Positions 1-7,283 of a DNA stretch of 7,283 nt are shown in pieces (position 1 is the stretch's first letter; every line of letters starts with the position of its first letter). A program made the translations under genes and the position numbers. The stretch is from Candidatus Desantisbacteria bacterium CG1_02_49_89 (GTDB lineage Bacteria > Desantisbacteria > UBA1551): NCBI GenBank assembly GCA_001871075.1, contig MNUP01000098.1, positions 1 through 7,283 on the forward strand. Reading direction: 5' to 3'. The notes beneath the pieces are model-generated. The model did no database searches. It saw only the letters and a program-made list of their open reading frames with translations, and was not told where the DNA came from.

Positions 1-876
1 AACTACGCGCAGGTCGCCGAAGTAAGCCAATGCTCAACCTCCTACACGGACAACGCCATTACAACAGACCTGATATACTACTGGACCGTGATGGCCAAGA
101 ATTCCTGGGATATGCTGAGCCTGATAAGCGAGGAAGTTGACAACAAAGGAAACCTGGTAATAATGTTGCCCGGTGAAACCCAGACTTACGTGATGCTTCC
201 CAGGAATACGGTAATGCTGCTTGATTCGGCAGATTCAAAAGCAATAGGCATAACAGCGACGCGAACGGGTATCCTGCCGCCGACAGCCGGAGGCCTGGGC
301 GCCATAGTAGGCATATTTGACTTTATACCCTACAGGATCTCTGACGGGGCACAGGTCGGGTTCAACGCTTCTCCCGAAACGCTTGTTATAGCCCTGCATT
401 ACGCGGCGCCGGGCGGACTTCTGGAGAACACAGGTATTTCTCTTGCTGACGCGGCAAAATACATAAGCATCGCTTACTGGAACGGGATACAGTGGACCAG
501 GATCAACGGGACTGTAGACGCGGCAAACCAGAACATAACCGCCATTGTCACACACCTGAGCAGGTTCGCGATAACTGCAACGGATGTTACCTCGTTCAGG
601 GTGCTGGCGGCTGAACCCAACCCGTTCACTCCGCTCAACCCCCCGTATGATAAAGTAACGGTCTCCTTCGCTAATCCTAACAAATACGAGGTTATTTTCA
701 GCATTTACGACCTTACCGGCACCCTGTTCTTCACGAAAACATATACGGCGGGCGAAATAAAGATCGAGTGGGACGGCAAAGACAGGAACGGGAATGTCGG
801 CGAGGACGGCATTTACATTTACCAGTTGCAGTGCGGCACGCAGTCCTATACCGGCACGATGATCCTGGCCAAATAA
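1..876 (+). CDS. C-terminal part of a large extracellular protein with FnIII-like and FlgD-type Ig domains (5' end outside window)
   Basis: The reading frame is open from base 1, so this is the last 291 residues of a longer protein. The GTG/ATG codons at 88-93 are internal. Visible residues 1-45 look like the end of a fibronectin type III domain (IYYWTVMAKNSW followed by SEEV). Residues 48-195 form a beta-rich region ending in YWNGIQW and HLSRFAI, a pattern often seen before C-terminal sorting or Ig domains in surface proteins. Residues 199-291 resemble the FlgD Ig-like fold: EPNPFTP, then IYDLTG, WDGKDRNG and GIYIY, ending in a GTMILAK strand. Such C-termini are found on secreted or cell-surface proteins and resemble type IX secretion C-terminal domains. 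It is not the flagellar hook-cap protein FlgD itself as far as can be seen. The PorV-like gene follows after 61 bases, which suggests a secretion pairing (inference). Substrate and precise role are unknown. Confidence 0.85.
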   Translation, partial: NYAQVAEVSQCSTSYTDNAITTDLIYYWTVMAKNSWDMLSLISEEVDNKGNLVIMLPGETQTYVMLPRNTVMLLDSADSKAIGITATRTGILPPTAGGLGAIVGIFDFIPYRISDGAQVGFNASPETLVIALHYAAPGGLLENTGISLADAAKYISIAYWNGIQWTRINGTVDAANQNITAIVTHLSRFAITATDVTSFRVLAAEPNPFTPLNPPYDKVTVSFANPNKYEVIFSIYDLTGTLFFTKTYTAGEIKIEWDGKDRNGNVGEDGIYIYQLQCGTQSYTGTMILAK

Positions 877-937: not shown

Positions 938-1918
938 ATGTTCAATAAATATCTCAACAAAATATTCGTGGGCATCTTTATTCTTGCGTTACACGTGACA
1001 CCTTACACGTTACACGTCTGTTATGCGTCATATGAGGACATCGGCTGCGGCGCAAGGCCCCTGGGCATCGGGAACGCGTTCTGCGCCATAGCTGACGACG
1101 CCAATGCATTCCTGTATAACCCCGCCGGGCTTCCGCAGCTTAAAAAACTGCAGGTGAGCGCAATGTACGCCAATCTTTATCCGCTATTAAGCGACAGGTC
1201 CATAATCAGCAACAATTATCTTGCGGTAGCATACCCGATGAAACAGGCGGCTATAGGGGTGGCGTGGTTCAGCCTCGGCGCGGTTTCCGACCCGGAAAGA
1301 TCAAAAGCGCAATACCAGGAAAATACGTACCTGCTGACCTACGCAAGGCAGATGGAACGCTTCTACATAGGGTTCTCGGCCAGGTTCCACTCGAAAGAAT
1401 ACGGCGTGAACGACTGGACAGCCGTAAACCCCGTGTTCACAAGGAAGAAAACCGCGTTCGGCGTGGGCATTGACGCCGCGATGCTTTACAGGACCGAGGA
1501 CAACCTGTTCAAGTTCGGCCTGCTGGTCGCCGACATAAACCAGCCTGACCTCGGCATAGCGTCCCCAAGCCCGGTCCCGATGTCTGCCAGGGCTGGTATC
1601 GCCTATGAATTCGAGCCGGTCTGGGTTTTCAACGACCTGACAGGCGCGGTGGATGTTACCTACCGGGATAATGACGTAAAAGCCCAGGGCGGCATAGAAG
1701 GATGGTTCATTGAAAGGACTGTAGCGGTCAGGATAGGGGGCGGGTTCGGCAGCAATTCCTACGGATTAATATCAATGGGGGCAAGCTACCAGCTTACCGA
1801 GGAACAATACAATAATGATTTCAGGATCGATTACGCCTTCTCCTGCCCGTTAGGAGGCCTGCAGCCGACAGGCGGGACGCACAGGATATCGCTCACAATG
1901 GGATTTGATGTGAAATAA
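938..1918 (+). CDS. PorV/UPF0164-like outer-membrane beta-barrel protein
   Basis: 326 residues. The N-terminus (MFNKYLNKIFVGIFILAL, then a polar stretch, then CYA before SYED) is a signal peptide with likely cleavage near residue 30. Residues 38-65 carry the signature of the PorV/PorQ/UPF0164 family: GARPLGIGNAF, then a DDANAF stretch and YNPAGL. The rest consists of alternating amphipathic strands with turns, as expected for a 14-stranded FadL-like barrel, and the length is close to the family's usual 300-400. PorV proteins act in type IX secretion as shuttles that carry cargo bearing C-terminal Ig-like signals; many uncultivated phyla have homologues of unproven function. The upstream gene ends in such a domain. 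The start is ATG with GAGGG at 930-934, a rather close spacing of 3 bases. Oddity: codons 17-27 consist of a heptad repeat tract (986-1018). Alternatively it could be a general FadL-like porin. Confidence 0.8.
   Translation: MFNKYLNKIFVGIFILALHVTPYTLHVCYASYEDIGCGARPLGIGNAFCAIADDANAFLYNPAGLPQLKKLQVSAMYANLYPLLSDRSIISNNYLAVAYPMKQAAIGVAWFSLGAVSDPERSKAQYQENTYLLTYARQMERFYIGFSARFHSKEYGVNDWTAVNPVFTRKKTAFGVGIDAAMLYRTEDNLFKFGLLVADINQPDLGIASPSPVPMSARAGIAYEFEPVWVFNDLTGAVDVTYRDNDVKAQGGIEGWFIERTVAVRIGGGFGSNSYGLISMGASYQLTEEQYNNDFRIDYAFSCPLGGLQPTGGTHRISLTMGFDVK
986..1018. repeat. Antisense ACGTGTA heptad tract inside signal-peptide codons
   Basis: Read on the minus strand this stretch is ACGTGTA-ACGTGTA-AGGTGTC-ACGTGTA-ACGC, a 7-bp tandem tract of the same type as the intergenic one at 874-900. 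Read as the plus-strand gene it encodes residues 17-27, where the tripeptide LHV appears twice exactly 7 residues (21 bases) apart. That is the protein periodicity expected when a 7-bp repeat is translated. Confidence 0.8.
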
Positions 1919-2133: not shown

Positions 2134-3303
2134 ATGGCTGAACCTATTCTATCCAAATTTAAACTGCCTCCGACTAAACTTTCAAGGCCTATAATAATAA
2201 TTATTATATGCGTGGCTGTTGCTGTTTTTGGCTTTATTTTCATCAGGAACGTGAGCCGGCTCGCGTCAAACAAGATCACGCAGCAGATGAAATACAGCGA
2301 AACAAACAAAGGCATCCAGATGCCTGACGTCCCGGGGTACCAGAAACTGGCGATAGAAAAAGAAATGGAAAGAAGGGTCCAGAATATAATGGACGAGATC
2401 GTCGGGCCCCAGAAATCCATCGTCAGGGTGACAGTTGACCTCACGCCTATGATCCAGGACAAGGAAGAGGTCCACACCCCAAGGCCCATATCTACTACGA
2501 AAGAGGAAAAATACACGGTTTCCTCCGAAAGAGGAACTGAAGACAAAGCCGCGGAGGAACCTGCGGGAACCGCTGCCAAGAAAGAAAACCTGCCGGGAGT
2601 CTTTGATGACGTGGAAGACCAGATAAGAGCAAGGGGCGGGGAGGAATATTTTCTGTATCCGGGTTATCCGTCCGTGGGGGACCTTGAAGCAAAACCCATG
2701 GGCCGCGCTCCGATGGGAAGTAACCAGGAAAAATCAGGAACGAAATCAGTAAGAGAAGCGTCATCCACCGACTATGCCCTGGATAAGAAAATAACGGAAA
2801 GGACCACGCCGGCGGGAACAATAGACAGGATAAGCGTGCTGGCGCTTGTTGACGTGAACTGGATCAAGACCTTCACCGGAAGGACGATCCAGAGGAAAAG
2901 GTCAGAAAAGGAATTAGACCAGATAAAAACACTGATAACAGACGCGATCGGGTTCAGCGAGGACAGGGGGGACACGATAATAATGCAGAACGTCGCCTTC
3001 CTGGGAGCAAGGCCCAAGGTCGAAATGATGGAAAGGATCACGACCGGGATAACCGTCCTGATACTGCTGCCGCTTATTTATTTTATCGTGAAAACAACGC
3101 TCACATTCCTGAAGCGCAGGGCTGAAATAAGGCAGGAAATGATCGAGAAAATGCAACAGGAAGAAGAAGCGGAGAAAGAAAGGAAAATAAAGGAAGAAAA
3201 GGAACTGAGGGAAAGGATACAGATGCACCAGGAGCAGGTGTTCACCATCGGCAGGACGCATCCCGACATTTGCGCGCGTATTATTCGAAACTGGCTTACT
3301 TAA
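2134..3303 (+). CDS. fliF: Shortened FliF-like MS-ring protein lacking RBM1 and RBM2
   Basis: 389 residues; typical FliF has about 500-570. FliF forms the inner-membrane MS ring on which FliG sits. Residues 20-40 are a first membrane helix. Only about 28 residues later comes the segment that normally follows RBM2 (YQKLAIEKEMERRVQ, residues 69-83, then IVGP at 89-92). Residues 94-292 correspond to the RBM3/beta-collar domain, including STDYALDK (211-218) and the family hallmark GFSEDRGD (273-280). Residues 304-320 are the second membrane helix. Residues 326-368 are a charged coiled coil, and 376-389 (THPDICARIIRNWLT) are the FliG-binding tail. The RBM1 and RBM2 domains, normally about 200 residues between the first helix and RBM3, are absent while the frame stays intact. 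The start is supported by AGGAG at 2123-2127. The next two genes are a copy of this tail and fliG. The family call is firm; the missing domains are judged by eye. Confidence 0.88.
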   Translation: MAEPILSKFKLPPTKLSRPIIIIIICVAVAVFGFIFIRNVSRLASNKITQQMKYSETNKGIQMPDVPGYQKLAIEKEMERRVQNIMDEIVGPQKSIVRVTVDLTPMIQDKEEVHTPRPISTTKEEKYTVSSERGTEDKAAEEPAGTAAKKENLPGVFDDVEDQIRARGGEEYFLYPGYPSVGDLEAKPMGRAPMGSNQEKSGTKSVREASSTDYALDKKITERTTPAGTIDRISVLALVDVNWIKTFTGRTIQRKRSEKELDQIKTLITDAIGFSEDRGDTIIMQNVAFLGARPKVEMMERITTGITVLILLPLIYFIVKTTLTFLKRRAEIRQEMIEKMQQEEEAEKERKIKEEKELRERIQMHQEQVFTIGRTHPDICARIIRNWLT

Positions 3304-3308
3304 AAAAC

Positions 3309-3406
3309 AATTATGAGTTATGAATGATGAATTATGAATTAAAGGCATGGAATTTTATCTAAATTTAACTTCCTTGCAGTTGATTCATAACTCATAATTC
3401 ATAATT
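3309..3406. repeat. ATGAATT heptad tracts forming a 17-bp inverted repeat
   Basis: The left tract (3311-3342) is built of TTATGAG-TTATGAA-TGATGAA-TTATGAA units. The right tract (3383-3406) is the same family inverted (TTCATAA, CTCATAA, TTCATAA). Bases 3309-3325 and 3383-3399 are perfect reverse complements (17 bp) around a 57-base spacer, so RNA from this gap could fold into a long A+U-rich stem. The gap lies between the fliF-like gene and the small tail gene. There is no typical GC-rich terminator. Confidence 0.8.
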
Positions 3407-3439
3407 TTATTTGTATTTAAAAGGAAGGAGCAAAAGCAA

Positions 3440-3697
3440 ATGACTGGATTTACATTACTTATATTAGTATCTATTGGAGCAATAGCCGGGATCACTTATC
3501 TGGTCATAAGAATGAACGCGTCTTCCTCTGAAAAAAAGGCGGTGCGCGCCGCCGAAAAGAGAAAGACTGACACCGAGGAAAGGGAAAAGCAGGAAAAAAT
3601 GCGCATTGAAATGCAGATGCACCAGGAAGAAGCGCTCGCGATGGCGAAGAACAATCCTGAGCTGGTCGCGCGGGTAGTGCGCAACTGGCTTACTTGA
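3440..3697 (+). CDS. Mini-FliF: membrane helix plus FliF-type FliG-binding tail only
   Basis: 85 residues. Residues 2-25 are a membrane helix, 30-65 a charged coiled-coil segment, and 72-85 (NNPELVARVVRNWLT) match the C-terminal FliG-binding motif of FliF. It aligns end to end with the last 86 residues of the upstream FliF-like protein: TGFTLLIL against TGITVLIL at the helix, QMHQEE against QMHQEQ in the coil, and ARVVRNWLT against ARIIRNWLT at the end. The ring-forming domains are entirely missing. The start has a strong Shine-Dalgarno, AAGGAAGGAG at 3421-3430, identical to that of the FliM-like gene. It lies between fliF and fliG and is flanked by near-identical intergenic blocks, which suggests origin by tandem duplication of the fliF 3' end (inference). 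It probably sits in the inner membrane and presents an extra FliG-binding tail. FliO and FliL, also small single-helix flagellar proteins, do not carry this tail. Confidence 0.85.
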   Translation: MTGFTLLILVSIGAIAGITYLVIRMNASSSEKKAVRAAEKRKTDTEEREKQEKMRIEMQMHQEEALAMAKNNPELVARVVRNWLT

Positions 3698-3706
3698 AAA
3701 ATATAT

Positions 3707-3803
3707 TTATGAGTTATGAATGATGAATTATGAATTAACCGCAAGGATGTTTATTTAAATAGAAATTCCTTCACTCATAACTCATAATTCATAACTCATA
3801 ATT
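3707..3803. repeat. Second ATGAATT heptad block, inverted repeat abutting the fliG ribosome-binding site
   Basis: The 32 bases at 3707-3738 are identical to 3311-3342 in the preceding gap. The inverted tract at 3773-3803 is built of CTCATAA/TTCATAA heptads. Bases 3707-3721 and 3787-3801 are perfect reverse complements (15 bp). The right arm ends 2 bases before the AAGGAG at 3804-3809 used by fliG. The spacers of the two gaps also look related (TTTAT.TAAAT and a later TTCCTT in both). Confidence 0.8.
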
Positions 3804-3820
3804 AAGGAGAGGGAGGAACA

Positions 3821-4825
3821 ATGGCGGAAGAACAGGAAGTTAAAACTTTGACGGCGGAAACGCTGTCGGGAGGCCAGAAAGCGGCGATACTTCTTATAGC
3901 GCTTGGGCCTGAAATATCCACGGAAGTCTATAAGCACATGGGCGAGGCGCAGATACGCCAGCTCACAAGGGAAATAGCGGGGCTCAGGCAGGTCACCAAG
4001 GATATAAGGGAAGCGGTATTCGAGGAATTCTACCAGAAAGCCATGGGCCTTGACTACATAAAGGGAAGCTCTGAGGACGCGCTGGACTTCCTCAAACGGA
4101 CCTTCGGGGACGAGAAAGCCGCCGAGTTCATGGAAGAGGTAAAAACAGCCGAGGATGGCGGCCCGGGGCTTTTTGATTTCCTGAAAAACCTCGGAACTGA
4201 TTTCCTTTACGAAGAACACCCGCAGGTCGCGGCCCTGGTGTTGTCGCACATGACACCCGAATGGGTCTCCTCAATAGTCTCAGCCGCGCCGCCGGCGTTC
4301 CAGGCAGACGTGCCCGAAAGAATGGCGACGATGGGCGAGGTAATGCCTGATGTGATAAAGGAAATAAGGGACCTGCTGCGCAAAAAGATGTCTTCCGCGA
4401 CAAAAAAGGAAGCTACGTCCAAGAACAGGCTCAGTTTCCTCGCGAAGATGGTGGAAGGCGACGGCGGTGACAGGGTCCTGGAAGGCTTAAGGCAAAAAGA
4501 CCCGAAGCTTGCGGAAGAAGTAAGGGGGCTGGTATTCCTTTTTGAGGACGTGGTTACCATTGAAGATGAATCTCTGCAGCTCGCGCTGGGAAAAGTGGGG
4601 GTAGAGGACCTTGTTATGGCGCTCAAGGGCGCGACGAAGGAAATAAAGGACAAGATATTCAAGAACGTCTCCGGAAGGCTGCGTTCCATACTGAACGAAG
4701 AGCTCGAATACAAGAAGGAATCCCGCAAGGCGGATGTGGACAAGGCGCAGCGGAAGCTCGTCAACATACTGCGCGAGCTGGACAAGTCCGGAGATATCAT
4801 ACTTAAAAAAACAGAAACAGTCTGA
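3821..4825 (+). CDS. fliG: Flagellar motor switch protein FliG
   Basis: 334 residues, full length for the family. FliG couples the MS ring (FliF tail) to FliM and receives torque from the MotA stator on the cytoplasmic face. The N-domain starts with SGGQKAAILLIALG (16-29). The middle domain has the EHPQ motif at 132-135, which with its surroundings binds FliM. The C-domain has ALKGATKE (267-274) and the DVDKAQRKLVNILREL helix near the end. Aligned by eye to E. coli FliG, the charged torque residues are kept: K269 (K264), R286 (R281), E293 and E294 (D288, D289) and R302 (R297). The usual GPV before the last arginine is replaced by KES (299-301). The start is supported by AAGGAG at 3804-3809 and GGAGG at 3812-3816. 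The upstream neighbours supply two FliF-type tails and the downstream neighbour is FliM-like, consistent with one switch-complex unit. Confidence 0.96.
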   Translation: MAEEQEVKTLTAETLSGGQKAAILLIALGPEISTEVYKHMGEAQIRQLTREIAGLRQVTKDIREAVFEEFYQKAMGLDYIKGSSEDALDFLKRTFGDEKAAEFMEEVKTAEDGGPGLFDFLKNLGTDFLYEEHPQVAALVLSHMTPEWVSSIVSAAPPAFQADVPERMATMGEVMPDVIKEIRDLLRKKMSSATKKEATSKNRLSFLAKMVEGDGGDRVLEGLRQKDPKLAEEVRGLVFLFEDVVTIEDESLQLALGKVGVEDLVMALKGATKEIKDKIFKNVSGRLRSILNEELEYKKESRKADVDKAQRKLVNILRELDKSGDIILKKTETV

Positions 4826-4829
4826 TAAT

Positions 4830-4897
4830 AGTAACAAGTAACAAGTGTCAAGTATCAAGTTTGAAACTGGCCACTGGAAACTGGCCACTGGAAACTG
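4830..4897. repeat. Composite heptad tract: AGTAACA units followed by ACTGGCC/ACTGGAA units
   Basis: It begins 5 bases after the fliG stop. The first part (4830-4862) steps through AGTAACA, AGTGTCA, AGTATCA and AGTTTG. The second part (4866-4897) is a clean alternation ACTGGCC-ACTGGAA-ACTGGCC-ACTGGAA-ACTG. Both have a 7-bp period. The same two-part arrangement in the same order occurs at 7222-7283. Confidence 0.85.
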
Positions 4898-4920: not shown

Positions 4921-5493
4921 ATGGCTGAATTGACAAATGAGCAGAAGGGCGTCCTTAAGGATCTTCTTACAAACCTTGGCGGAAGAACAAGCGAGTCTTT
5001 CTCGAAGGTCGCTAAAAGAAGGGTAGAGGTTAAATACACCAAGTGGGAAATAGAGGATTACCAAAAATTCATCGAATACCTCCCGCACTTCACCGCGATA
5101 GGGATATTCGGGACCGAACTGTCCAAGGACCAGATACTTATTGACGCGCATCCGTCTTTGTCCTACTACCTGCTGGACAAGCTGCTGGGCGGGAAAGGGG
5201 AAGCCGGGATTATCGAAGGAAAGAAAATGACAGAGATAGAAAGGGTGCTTTTCCAGGATTTTGTTTTCGCGGGACTTACGCAATCCTGGGAAGAAGGCTG
5301 GGAAAACATCACGGGGCTGCAGCTCAAAATGAGCCTTATAAGGGTTGAGAGCGACCCGTTCCTTACCAGAAGGATGGACGGCAAATTCGTGCACGCCTTT
5401 ATGGAATGCCAGTTCGAAAAAGGCAAGGAAGAAATAAACGTCTGCATCCCGCACAAAGTCGCGGAGATGATCGGCGCCGCCCCGCAAGCATAA
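4921..5493 (+). CDS. fliM: FliM-like switch protein reduced to the middle (CheC-like) domain
   Basis: 190 residues from the ATG chosen by its Shine-Dalgarno; full FliM is about 330. The whole chain matches the FliM middle domain. Residues 5-60 are the opening helix and strand, 76-93 contain the pseudo-twofold motif HPSL and the GGKG loop (90-93) that contacts FliG, 103-107 (MTEIE) begin the second long helix, 139-147 are LIRVESDPF, and 173-184 (NVCIPHKVAEMI) form the closing strand and helix. The N-terminal CheY-P-binding peptide (normally an EIDALL-like motif) is absent. The C-terminal SPOA/FliN-like domain that assembles the C ring is also absent, and the stop is followed by repeat DNA. The CheC phosphatase motif is not evident, so FliM is preferred over CheC. 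It follows fliG by 95 bases. It would bind the FliG middle domain, but how it joins FliN is unclear. I cannot tell whether the missing parts are encoded elsewhere. Confidence 0.85.
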   Translation: MAELTNEQKGVLKDLLTNLGGRTSESFSKVAKRRVEVKYTKWEIEDYQKFIEYLPHFTAIGIFGTELSKDQILIDAHPSLSYYLLDKLLGGKGEAGIIEGKKMTEIERVLFQDFVFAGLTQSWEEGWENITGLQLKMSLIRVESDPFLTRRMDGKFVHAFMECQFEKGKEEINVCIPHKVAEMIGAAPQA

Positions 5494-5650: not shown

Positions 5651-6781
5651 ATGCGCGTTAAATTGACGAAGTCAATGATACTGGCCATAATGATCATGCT
5701 GACCGCCGGCAATGCGGTATACGGGAGCTTCAACCGCACGACAGGCCTGATAAACATCCCCACGGCCGGAACAACGCTGAAAGAAGGCGATTTTGAAAAA
5801 GGCCTTCTGGTGAATTTCTCCTCCGAAATATTCACGATGGATATGAAACTCAACTACGGCATCAACGACAGGTGCGAAATAGGCATATCCATATTTGACG
5901 CGTTCGGCTCAGCGGCAACCAAGGCGAATTTCCACTGGCAGGTACTCGGCGGAAAAAAGATACAGATGGCCCTGGGTATCCAGAACATACCTCTTGCCGG
6001 CGATATCAACCTTGTTCCTAATTCGCTTTCCCCGTATGCGGTTTTTACCCTTTATGTGATCCCGAGTATGTCGCTCAATGTGGGGATGGGAGGCGGCAGG
6101 TTCAGAAGCGAAACCCTTGCTCCGGGGTTCGGCGGGTTTTTCGCAGGCATAGAGTTCCTTATCAAGTCCACGAAACTCGGATTTGAATACGACGGCAACT
6201 GGCTTAACGTCGGAATTAAATACAACCTTACGCCAAACATAATACTCGAAGGCGCGGGGATACGCCTAAATGATACCGCGAAAGGCCTTGCTGCGACCGT
6301 GGGCGTCAGCATCATAGATTTCCCCAAGAGGCAGTCCGCGGAAATATCGGAAGGCGTGATCAGCAAAGACGAGATAACAAAAATAATAAACGACCAGATA
6401 ATGAAAATAATGCCTATAGAGGAAAAACCTGCGGGTCCGGGCATGGGCGAAACCCCCGGAGGAAGGCTTACCGGGATCAAAGAAGACCAGGCAACTATGG
6501 ACAACCTTGCGTTCGAGCACGCCCAGGCGGGCACGCGCTATTACTTCCAGGGTGAATACGCCAAGGCGGTTGACGAGTTCAAAATGGCGATCGCGATGAA
6601 TGAAAATATTTTCATATTCCACTGCCAGCTCGGTTCCGTGTATTACAAACTCGGGATGATCGACAGCGCGGTCTCGGAATGGAACAGGGCGCTTGAGATC
6701 AACCCCAACGACAAGAATCTCAGCGAATTCCTGTTAAAAGTGCTTGAGGGCAAAATGGAAGCGGACCTCGCCCCGCGTTAG
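5651..6781 (+). CDS. Exported beta-barrel-like protein with C-terminal TPR repeats
   Basis: 376 residues. Residues 1-25 are a signal peptide (LTKSMILAIMIMLTAGNAVYG) with cleavage probably after VYG. Residues 30-225 are made of alternating strands: TGLINIPTAG near the start followed by KEGDFEKG, then repeated aromatic/glycine strands such as GIEFL, LGFEYDG and NVGIKYNL. This resembles YjbH-like and related outer-membrane proteins, which open with a G-x-x-N-x-P-T-A motif. Residues 226-285 are a helical, proline- and glycine-rich linker. Residues 287-354 fit two TPR units (AGTRYYFQGEYAKAVDEF and QLGSVYYKLGMIDSAVSEW) plus a capping helix. It would be an outer-membrane barrel with a periplasmic TPR platform. 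The start has AAGGGGAG at 5638-5645. Its place between the FliM-like gene and flbD suggests, but does not prove, a role with the motor or its outer-membrane passage. No specific family name is assigned. Confidence 0.8.
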   Translation: MRVKLTKSMILAIMIMLTAGNAVYGSFNRTTGLINIPTAGTTLKEGDFEKGLLVNFSSEIFTMDMKLNYGINDRCEIGISIFDAFGSAATKANFHWQVLGGKKIQMALGIQNIPLAGDINLVPNSLSPYAVFTLYVIPSMSLNVGMGGGRFRSETLAPGFGGFFAGIEFLIKSTKLGFEYDGNWLNVGIKYNLTPNIILEGAGIRLNDTAKGLAATVGVSIIDFPKRQSAEISEGVISKDEITKIINDQIMKIMPIEEKPAGPGMGETPGGRLTGIKEDQATMDNLAFEHAQAGTRYYFQGEYAKAVDEFKMAIAMNENIFIFHCQLGSVYYKLGMIDSAVSEWNRALEINPNDKNLSEFLLKVLEGKMEADLAPR

Positions 6782-7006: not shown

Positions 7007-7216
7007 ATGATAAAAGTGACGAAATTCGACGGGAATACAATTGTTATAAACGCGGATATGATAGAAACGGTGGAATGCACCCCCGACACCGTTATTTCCC
7101 TGACCACAAAAAATAAGATACTGGTCAAGGAATCAATTGATGAAGTGATTGCAAAGGTCCTCGCGTATAAACAGCAGGTGCACAAGTTCCCGGAACAGAG
7201 CGGATCTAATAATTAA
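7007..7216 (+). CDS. flbD: Flagellar protein FlbD (SwrD family)
   Basis: 69 residues beginning MIKVTKFDG, the usual N-terminus of this short family (about 60-75 residues). The hallmark stretch is residues 14-30: INADMIETVE then PDTVISLT, followed by KILVKES at 37-43. FlbD is a small cytoplasmic protein usually encoded between hook genes and motA/motB. The Bacillus homologue SwrD raises motor torque, so it fits with the rotor genes upstream. The ATG at 7007 is preferred because MIKVTK matches the family start and an AGGA lies 5 bases upstream; the longer frame from GTG 6968 would add KIRGNPW-type residues made from the 10-bp repeat. The barrel-TPR gene is 225 bases upstream, so a separate promoter is possible, though none is convincing. 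Stator genes may follow beyond the window (inference). Confidence 0.92.
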   Translation: MIKVTKFDGNTIVINADMIETVECTPDTVISLTTKNKILVKESIDEVIAKVLAYKQQVHKFPEQSGSNN

Positions 7217-7221
7217 ATTCA

Positions 7222-7283
7222 GTGACAAGTAACAAGTGACAAGTAACAAGTTAAAAACTGGACACTGGATACTGGACACTGGA
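7222..7283. repeat. Second composite tract: GTGACAA/GTAACAA units then ACTGGAC units
   Basis: 7222-7252 alternate GTGACAA-GTAACAA-GTGACAA-GTAACAA-GTT. 7257-7283 read ACTGGAC-ACTGGAT-ACTGGAC-ACTGGA and run to the window edge. This is the same two-part order as at 4830-4897, again starting just after a flagellar gene's stop codon. Confidence 0.85.

What the first reader, a model, noticed from the sequence alone, without database searches (positions are those of the whole stretch)
3440..3697. A stand-alone FliF tail protein (mini-FliF) between fliF and fliG
The 85-residue product aligns along its whole length with the last 86 residues of the neighbouring FliF: same helix start, same QMHQE word, same RNWLT end. 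It would offer FliG a second, ring-free docking site. That could change FliG stoichiometry, bridge symmetry mismatch between MS and C rings, or cap FliG competitively. I know of no described standard flagellar component of this form.
Basis: partly seen in the sequence, partly recalled or inferred. Interest (0 to 1): 0.85.

Follow-up and report, generated by a model that had tools for sequence, protein, structure and literature searches.

The report
Stand-alone FliF tail anchoring FliG
A tiny membrane protein that is little more than the part of the flagellar ring protein FliF that grips the motor protein FliG sits in a stripped-down flagellar motor operon of a bacterium that shows no sign of making flagella; similar fragments have arisen separately in other bacteria, so it is probably a working motor part and not debris.

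Summary
ORF 3440-3697 (85 aa) is a single-TM protein that aligns end to end with FliF 304-389 and carries the FliG-binding tail. Its tail scores 32.7 bits against a profile of 45 unrelated FliF tails (median of real tails 32.5); the neighbouring FliF's own tail scores 20.6, the best of 2000 shuffles about 14. It has its own Shine-Dalgarno and native codon usage, and its synonymous sites are saturated relative to FliF while frame and tail are kept. A model of tail plus FliG N-domain co-folds into the FliF-FliG split ARM domain.

FliF here lacks RBM1/RBM2, FliM lacks its SpoA domain, and the genome (93.5% complete) shows no FlhA, SpoA, rod/hook or MotA gene. This is a reduced, apparently export-less rotor operon, not an ordinary flagellum.

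No orthologue could be tested: the only other genome held from the phylum lacks FliF and FliG. The same architecture occurs in other lineages, including all nine genomes of one order, and arose at least three times from the host's own fliF. Best reading: an accessory membrane anchor for FliG. Stoichiometry and phenotype are untested.

The parts
3440..3697 (+). mini-FliF: one TM helix (about residues 5-23), charged helix (26-58), FliG-binding tail (60-85)
3421..3430 (+). Shine-Dalgarno AAGGAAGGAG of mini-FliF
   Evidence: sequence
2134..3303 (+). reduced FliF: TM1, RBM3 (YscJ_FliF_C), TM2, charged helix, less canonical FliG-binding tail; no RBM1/RBM2
   Evidence: PF08345 E 1e-23 and no PF01514; TIGR00206 residues 71-388 to model 241-551; TMs
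3821..4825 (+). full FliG (N, M, C domains); EHPQ motif kept; K264, R281, D288E, D289E, R297 positions keep their charge
4921..5493 (+). FliM core only: lacks the N-terminal part and the SpoA (FliMN_C) domain
   Evidence: PF02154; TIGR01397 57-222/320; no PF01052 in genome
7007..7216 (+). FlbD
   Evidence: PF06289 E 9e-26
938..1918 (+). PorV/PorQ-like outer-membrane protein upstream
   Evidence: PF11751 E 1.4e-5; NF033709 E 2.5e-23, just under its cut-off
5651..6781 (+). protein with C-terminal TPR repeats inside the operon, probably a beta-barrel N-terminally (inferred)
1..876 (+). 3' end of a protein with a FlgD_ig / CHU_C-like C-terminal domain (below curated cut-offs)

Best explanation
The ORF is a functional accessory membrane anchor for FliG. 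It arose by duplication of the 3' end of the neighbouring fliF (TM2, charged helix, FliG-binding tail) and acquired its own start site. Its tail inserts into the FliG N-domain and completes the split ARM fold as FliF's tail does, so FliG subunits can be held at the membrane by either FliF or mini-FliF. In this operon it serves a reduced, apparently export-less rotor (FliF with RBM3 only, FliG, FliM core), where FliF's own tail has drifted from consensus and the canonical tail is carried by the small protein. Shown: homology, intact coding signals, canonical tail, co-folded docking in a model, recurrence in other lineages. Inferred: co-assembly with FliF in one ring, and what the rotor turns.
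For: Tail matches 45 unrelated FliF tails as well as a typical real tail and better than its parent. Across the aligned 84 codons pS is 0.86 (saturated) and pN 0.43; in the tail pS 0.59, pN 0.32, Fisher p=0.036. Model of tail-linker-FliG_N: both tail helices at pLDDT 86-90, FliG_N mostly 80-93; best Foldseek hits are FliG chains, first the one of the FliF-FliG complex 5wuj, with 5tdy also near the top; tail plus first FliG_N helices (model 15-163) superpose as one unit on FliG C-terminal ARM domains, rmsd 2.0 A over 86 residues. The tail profile hits the FliF peptides of 5wuj and 5tdy. Similar proteins elsewhere: five genomes of the 386-genome panel, all nine genomes of one order; the best FliF match is the own FliF (window, one other genome) or FliFs of the same order, so at least three origins. 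FliG keeps its torque-site charges.
Against: No orthologue is available from the same lineage, so selection on this very gene rests on paralogue comparison. The docking model used the in-frame read-through of the intergenic DNA as a linker, a 7-row alignment and no control peptide. The full-length fusion model was poor (pLDDT 59.8, pTM 0.35). No stator gene was found, so a working motor is not established.
Confidence: 0.55

Rival explanations
1. Division of labour: FliF no longer holds FliG in this system and mini-FliF is the main or only FliG anchor, FliF serving as a periplasmic RBM3 ring.
For: FliF tail scores 20.6 bits, about 40th of 46, against 32.7 for mini-FliF.
Against: The FliF tail keeps the P, A, R and W-L positions and still hits the tail profile at E 4e-10 (the profile included this tail), so it probably still binds.
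Confidence: 0.18
2. Competitive regulator: mini-FliF holds FliG at the membrane away from FliF and so limits rotor number or size.
For: In other genomes the small protein is encoded outside flagellar clusters beside housekeeping genes, which fits a separately controlled regulator.
Against: In the window it lies between fliF and fliG with its own strong ribosome-binding site, which suggests production alongside its supposed target.
Confidence: 0.17
3. Non-functional duplicate of the fliF 3' end.
For: No orthologue; partial paralogue flanked by two copies of a dispersed element.
Against: 85 open codons after synonymous saturation, strong SD, codon usage of a gene; the tail is closer to consensus than the parent's; similar proteins are kept throughout another order.
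Confidence: 0.07

Closest known systems
FliF C-terminal FliG-binding region (FliFc:FliGn complexes, PDB 5tdy and 5wuj)
   Same: two-helix tail with conserved Pro and Trp-Leu; predicted to complete the FliG_N ARM fold; TM helix directly before the charged helix
   Different: stand-alone 85-aa protein without RBM domains or TM1
FlgV of Campylobacterota (PMC10655999)
   Same: small membrane protein at the place where MS and C rings meet; FlgV forms its own ring there
   Different: FlgV has two TM helices, no FliF-like tail was found described in the passages read, and it is encoded between flhG and fliA
Chlamydiaceae FliF-FliG fusion (PMC4768692)
   Same: reduced FliF in a bacterium not thought to be flagellated, FliF and FliG coupled in an unusual way
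   Different: fused protein that keeps RBM2; here RBM3 is kept, FliG is separate and complete, and no FlhA was found
MotAB-linked RBM3-FliG_MC fusion clusters seen here (L068; also L070, L071)
   Same: reduced FliF/FliG rotor parts next to PorV- or TPR-type envelope proteins
   Different: fused into one protein with FliG_N lost or not detected, motAB adjacent, no mini-FliF seen

Membership tests
FliF (MS-ring protein) | C-terminal FliG-binding tail | tested here: met
FliF (MS-ring protein) | TM helix before the cytoplasmic tail | tested here: met
   hydropathy 2.39 over residues 5-23
FliF (MS-ring protein) | RBM3 / YscJ_FliF_C domain | tested here: not met
   no Pfam hit over cut-off in the 85-aa protein
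FliF (MS-ring protein) | RBM1-RBM2 / YscJ_FliF domain | tested here: not met
   absent from mini-FliF and from the neighbouring FliF
Canonical flagellar system | type III export gate (FlhA) | tested here: not met
   no PF00771 in the own genome, 93.5% complete
Canonical flagellar system | FliM/FliN SpoA domain | tested here: not met
   no PF01052 in genome; FliM in the window ends before it
Canonical flagellar system | rod and hook proteins | tested here: not met
   no PF00460 in genome
Canonical flagellar system | MotA stator | tested here: not met
   no PF20560; only MotA_ExbB hit is an ExbB-like gene downstream of a receptor-like gene; the gene could lie in the missing 6.5%
Canonical flagellar system | FliG with torque-site charges | tested here: met
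   alignment with Salmonella FliG
FlgV | two TM helices | tested here: not met
   one TM; FlgV topology from PMC10655999
FlgV | gene between flhG and fliA | tested here: not met
   lies between fliF and fliG
Stand-alone FliF-tail proteins of other genomes | single TM plus FliF tail, small, separate from fliF | tested here: met
Stand-alone FliF-tail proteins of other genomes | common descent as one family | tested here: not met
   best match is the own FliF, so origins look independent
MotAB-linked FliF-FliG fusion clusters | RBM3 and FliG_MC in one protein | tested here: not met
   separate genes in the window; fusion in L068 and weakly L070

The most novel reading that the evidence does not exclude
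The window encodes a flagellar rotor repurposed without an export apparatus (RBM3-only FliF, mini-FliF, FliG, FliM core) and coupled to PorV-type outer-membrane proteins for a non-flagellar task such as gliding, with a two-protein FliG scaffold; it is one of several convergent rotor-without-export machines, the reverse of injectisomes, which kept export and lost the rotor.
Probability: 0.3. Interest if true: 0.85.

Novelty: new variant of a known kind. Interest (0 to 1): 0.62.

Why it matters
FliG is usually thought to be held only by FliF, one to one. A separate, recurrent FliG anchor would break that rule and gives a simple test of how rotor stoichiometry is set. The surrounding operon suggests that the flagellar rotor can outlive the flagellum and its export gate, which makes the modular evolution of the motor directly testable.

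Tried and rejected
Orthologue search: the only other genome held from the phylum has no FliF or FliG; the one GTDB contig scan with FliG gave three distant FliG genes; viral contigs gave no FliF or mini-FliF relative. Misbinned contig: rejected, tetranucleotide profile and dispersed elements match other contigs of the genome. The flanking repeats dating the duplication: rejected, spacers are 84-85% alike while synonymous sites are saturated, and the elements occur elsewhere in the genome. L096 hit: false positive, no Trp-Leu tail. Single-sequence search of the PDB with mini-FliF: nothing significant. FliG tree: window FliG branches near ordinary FliGs and not with the fused ones, support 0.74 and 0.43, long branch, not relied on. 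Full mini-FliF-FliG model: too poor to use. Papers: seven searches found no description of a stand-alone FliF tail; subscription journals are mostly not in the library.

Full report
Observation. The window is a whole 7283-base contig of a 2.48-Mb, 150-contig genome estimated 93.5% complete. Gene order on the + strand: end of a protein with a FlgD_ig-like C-terminus (1-876), PorV/PorQ-like protein (938-1918), FliF (2134-3303), the ORF in question (3440-3697), FliG (3821-4825), FliM core (4921-5493), a TPR protein (5651-6781), FlbD (7007-7216). The 85-aa product aligns with FliF 304-389 along its length; local score 133 against a maximum of 83 in 5000 composition-keeping shuffles, E=2e-9 in a genome search. 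It has an AAGGAAGGAG site and coding statistics like its neighbours.

The tail is a FliG-binding tail. An HMM from 45 FliF tails of other genomes gives 32.7 bits for the mini-FliF tail, at the median of leave-one-out scores of the real tails (32.5), and 20.6 for the window's FliF. The same kind of profile hits the FliF peptides crystallised with FliG (5wuj, 5tdy). mini-fliF and fliG lie in the same frame, so their read-through gives a natural spacer of about 41 residues. A full-length model was poor, but tail-spacer-FliG_N gave tail helices at pLDDT 86-90, a disordered spacer, and FliG_N mostly at 80-93. The top Foldseek hits are FliG chains, those of the two FliF-FliG complexes among the first five. 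Model residues 15-163, that is mini-FliF 60-85 plus the first FliG_N helices, superpose on FliG C-terminal ARM domains at 2.0 A over 86 residues, as expected for the co-folded split domain of FliF and FliG (Lynch et al. 2017, cited in PMC10655999). This is a modelled interaction, without PAE and without a control peptide.

Selection. Compared with its parent, synonymous differences are saturated (pS 0.86 over 84 codons) and non-synonymous ones are not (0.43); in the tail 0.59 and 0.32, Fisher p=0.036. The small protein's tail lies nearer the general FliF consensus than the parent's, which a decaying fragment would not. The flanking spacers, copies of a dispersed element found on other contigs, are more alike than the synonymous sites, so they do not date the duplication.

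Recurrence. A tail profile run over 386 genomes found, besides full-length FliFs, small single-TM FliF-tail ORFs in five other genomes. In the order of one of them (G144) all nine genomes hold such an ORF; one (G386) has no clear TM and one (G391) is at a contig edge. In all six genomes of its main family the gene lies upstream of a purF-like gene, in five preceded by the same transporter-like gene (L102-L105, L117, L118). Pairwise pS there is 0.58-0.90 and pN 0.38-0.60, apart from one close pair. Best matches are to the own FliF in the window and in G055, and to FliFs of the same order in the G144 group. I infer at least three independent origins.

Context. FliF here has only the RBM3 region: Pfam finds YscJ_FliF_C but not YscJ_FliF, and TIGR00206 is matched from position 241 on. 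Among about 160 genomes with this domain it has the shortest open frame listed; two others under 430 aa were not examined further. FliM lacks both ends. The genome gives no match for FlhA, SpoA, MotA_N or rod/hook families, and its single MotA_ExbB hit is an ExbB-like gene. FliG is complete and keeps the torque-site charges (E. coli residue numbers from general knowledge, partly stated in PMC12505986). The simplest reading is a rotor kept without export. The contig ends 67 bases after flbD in a repeat, so motAB could lie beyond, although no MotA gene was found in the rest of the assembly.

Mechanism. I favour an accessory membrane anchor for FliG (0.55), over replacement of FliF as the main anchor (0.18), a competitive sink (0.17) and debris (0.07). 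Only homology, coding intactness, motif quality, modelled docking and recurrence are shown; co-assembly, copy number and phenotype are inferred.

Comparison. FlgV is the nearest described small protein at the MS/C-ring junction but has two TMs and no FliF tail in the passages read (PMC10655999). Chlamydiaceae have a reduced FliF fused to FliG (PMC4768692). Neither is the same thing. mini-FliF is not a FliF by domain content; it works like a FliF tail.

Noticed in passing
L068 5278-13992 (minus strand): Cluster with a giant FlgD_ig-type protein, a PorV-like protein, a 553-aa RBM3-FliG_M-FliG_C fusion, MotA-like and MotB-like genes: an apparently flagellum-independent rotor set.
   Followed up: partly
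L070 3-7900 and L071 1834-9299: One genome holds two FliG_MC-containing proteins (740 and 495 aa), each with MotA- and MotB-like genes downstream and TPR or outer-membrane-type neighbours.
   Followed up: partly
L072 57-3865 and L099 3650-7365: MotA, MotB, a 431-435-aa protein ending in a FliF-like tail but without a FliF family match, and FliG in a row; the genome of L099 also has an ordinary fliF-fliG pair elsewhere.
   Followed up: partly
window 3302-3405 and 3698-3808, also L086, L085, L082: Dispersed palindromic intergenic elements flank mini-fliF and occur on other contigs of the genome; further short repeat types fill other gaps of the operon.
   Followed up: partly
window 4830-4892 and 7221-7283: Two 87% alike repeat copies; the second ends the contig, a likely assembly break just downstream of flbD.
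   Followed up: no
L102-L105, L117, L118: Stand-alone FliF-tail gene upstream of a purF-like gene across one family, usually preceded by a transporter-like gene, not next to flagellar genes.
   Followed up: partly
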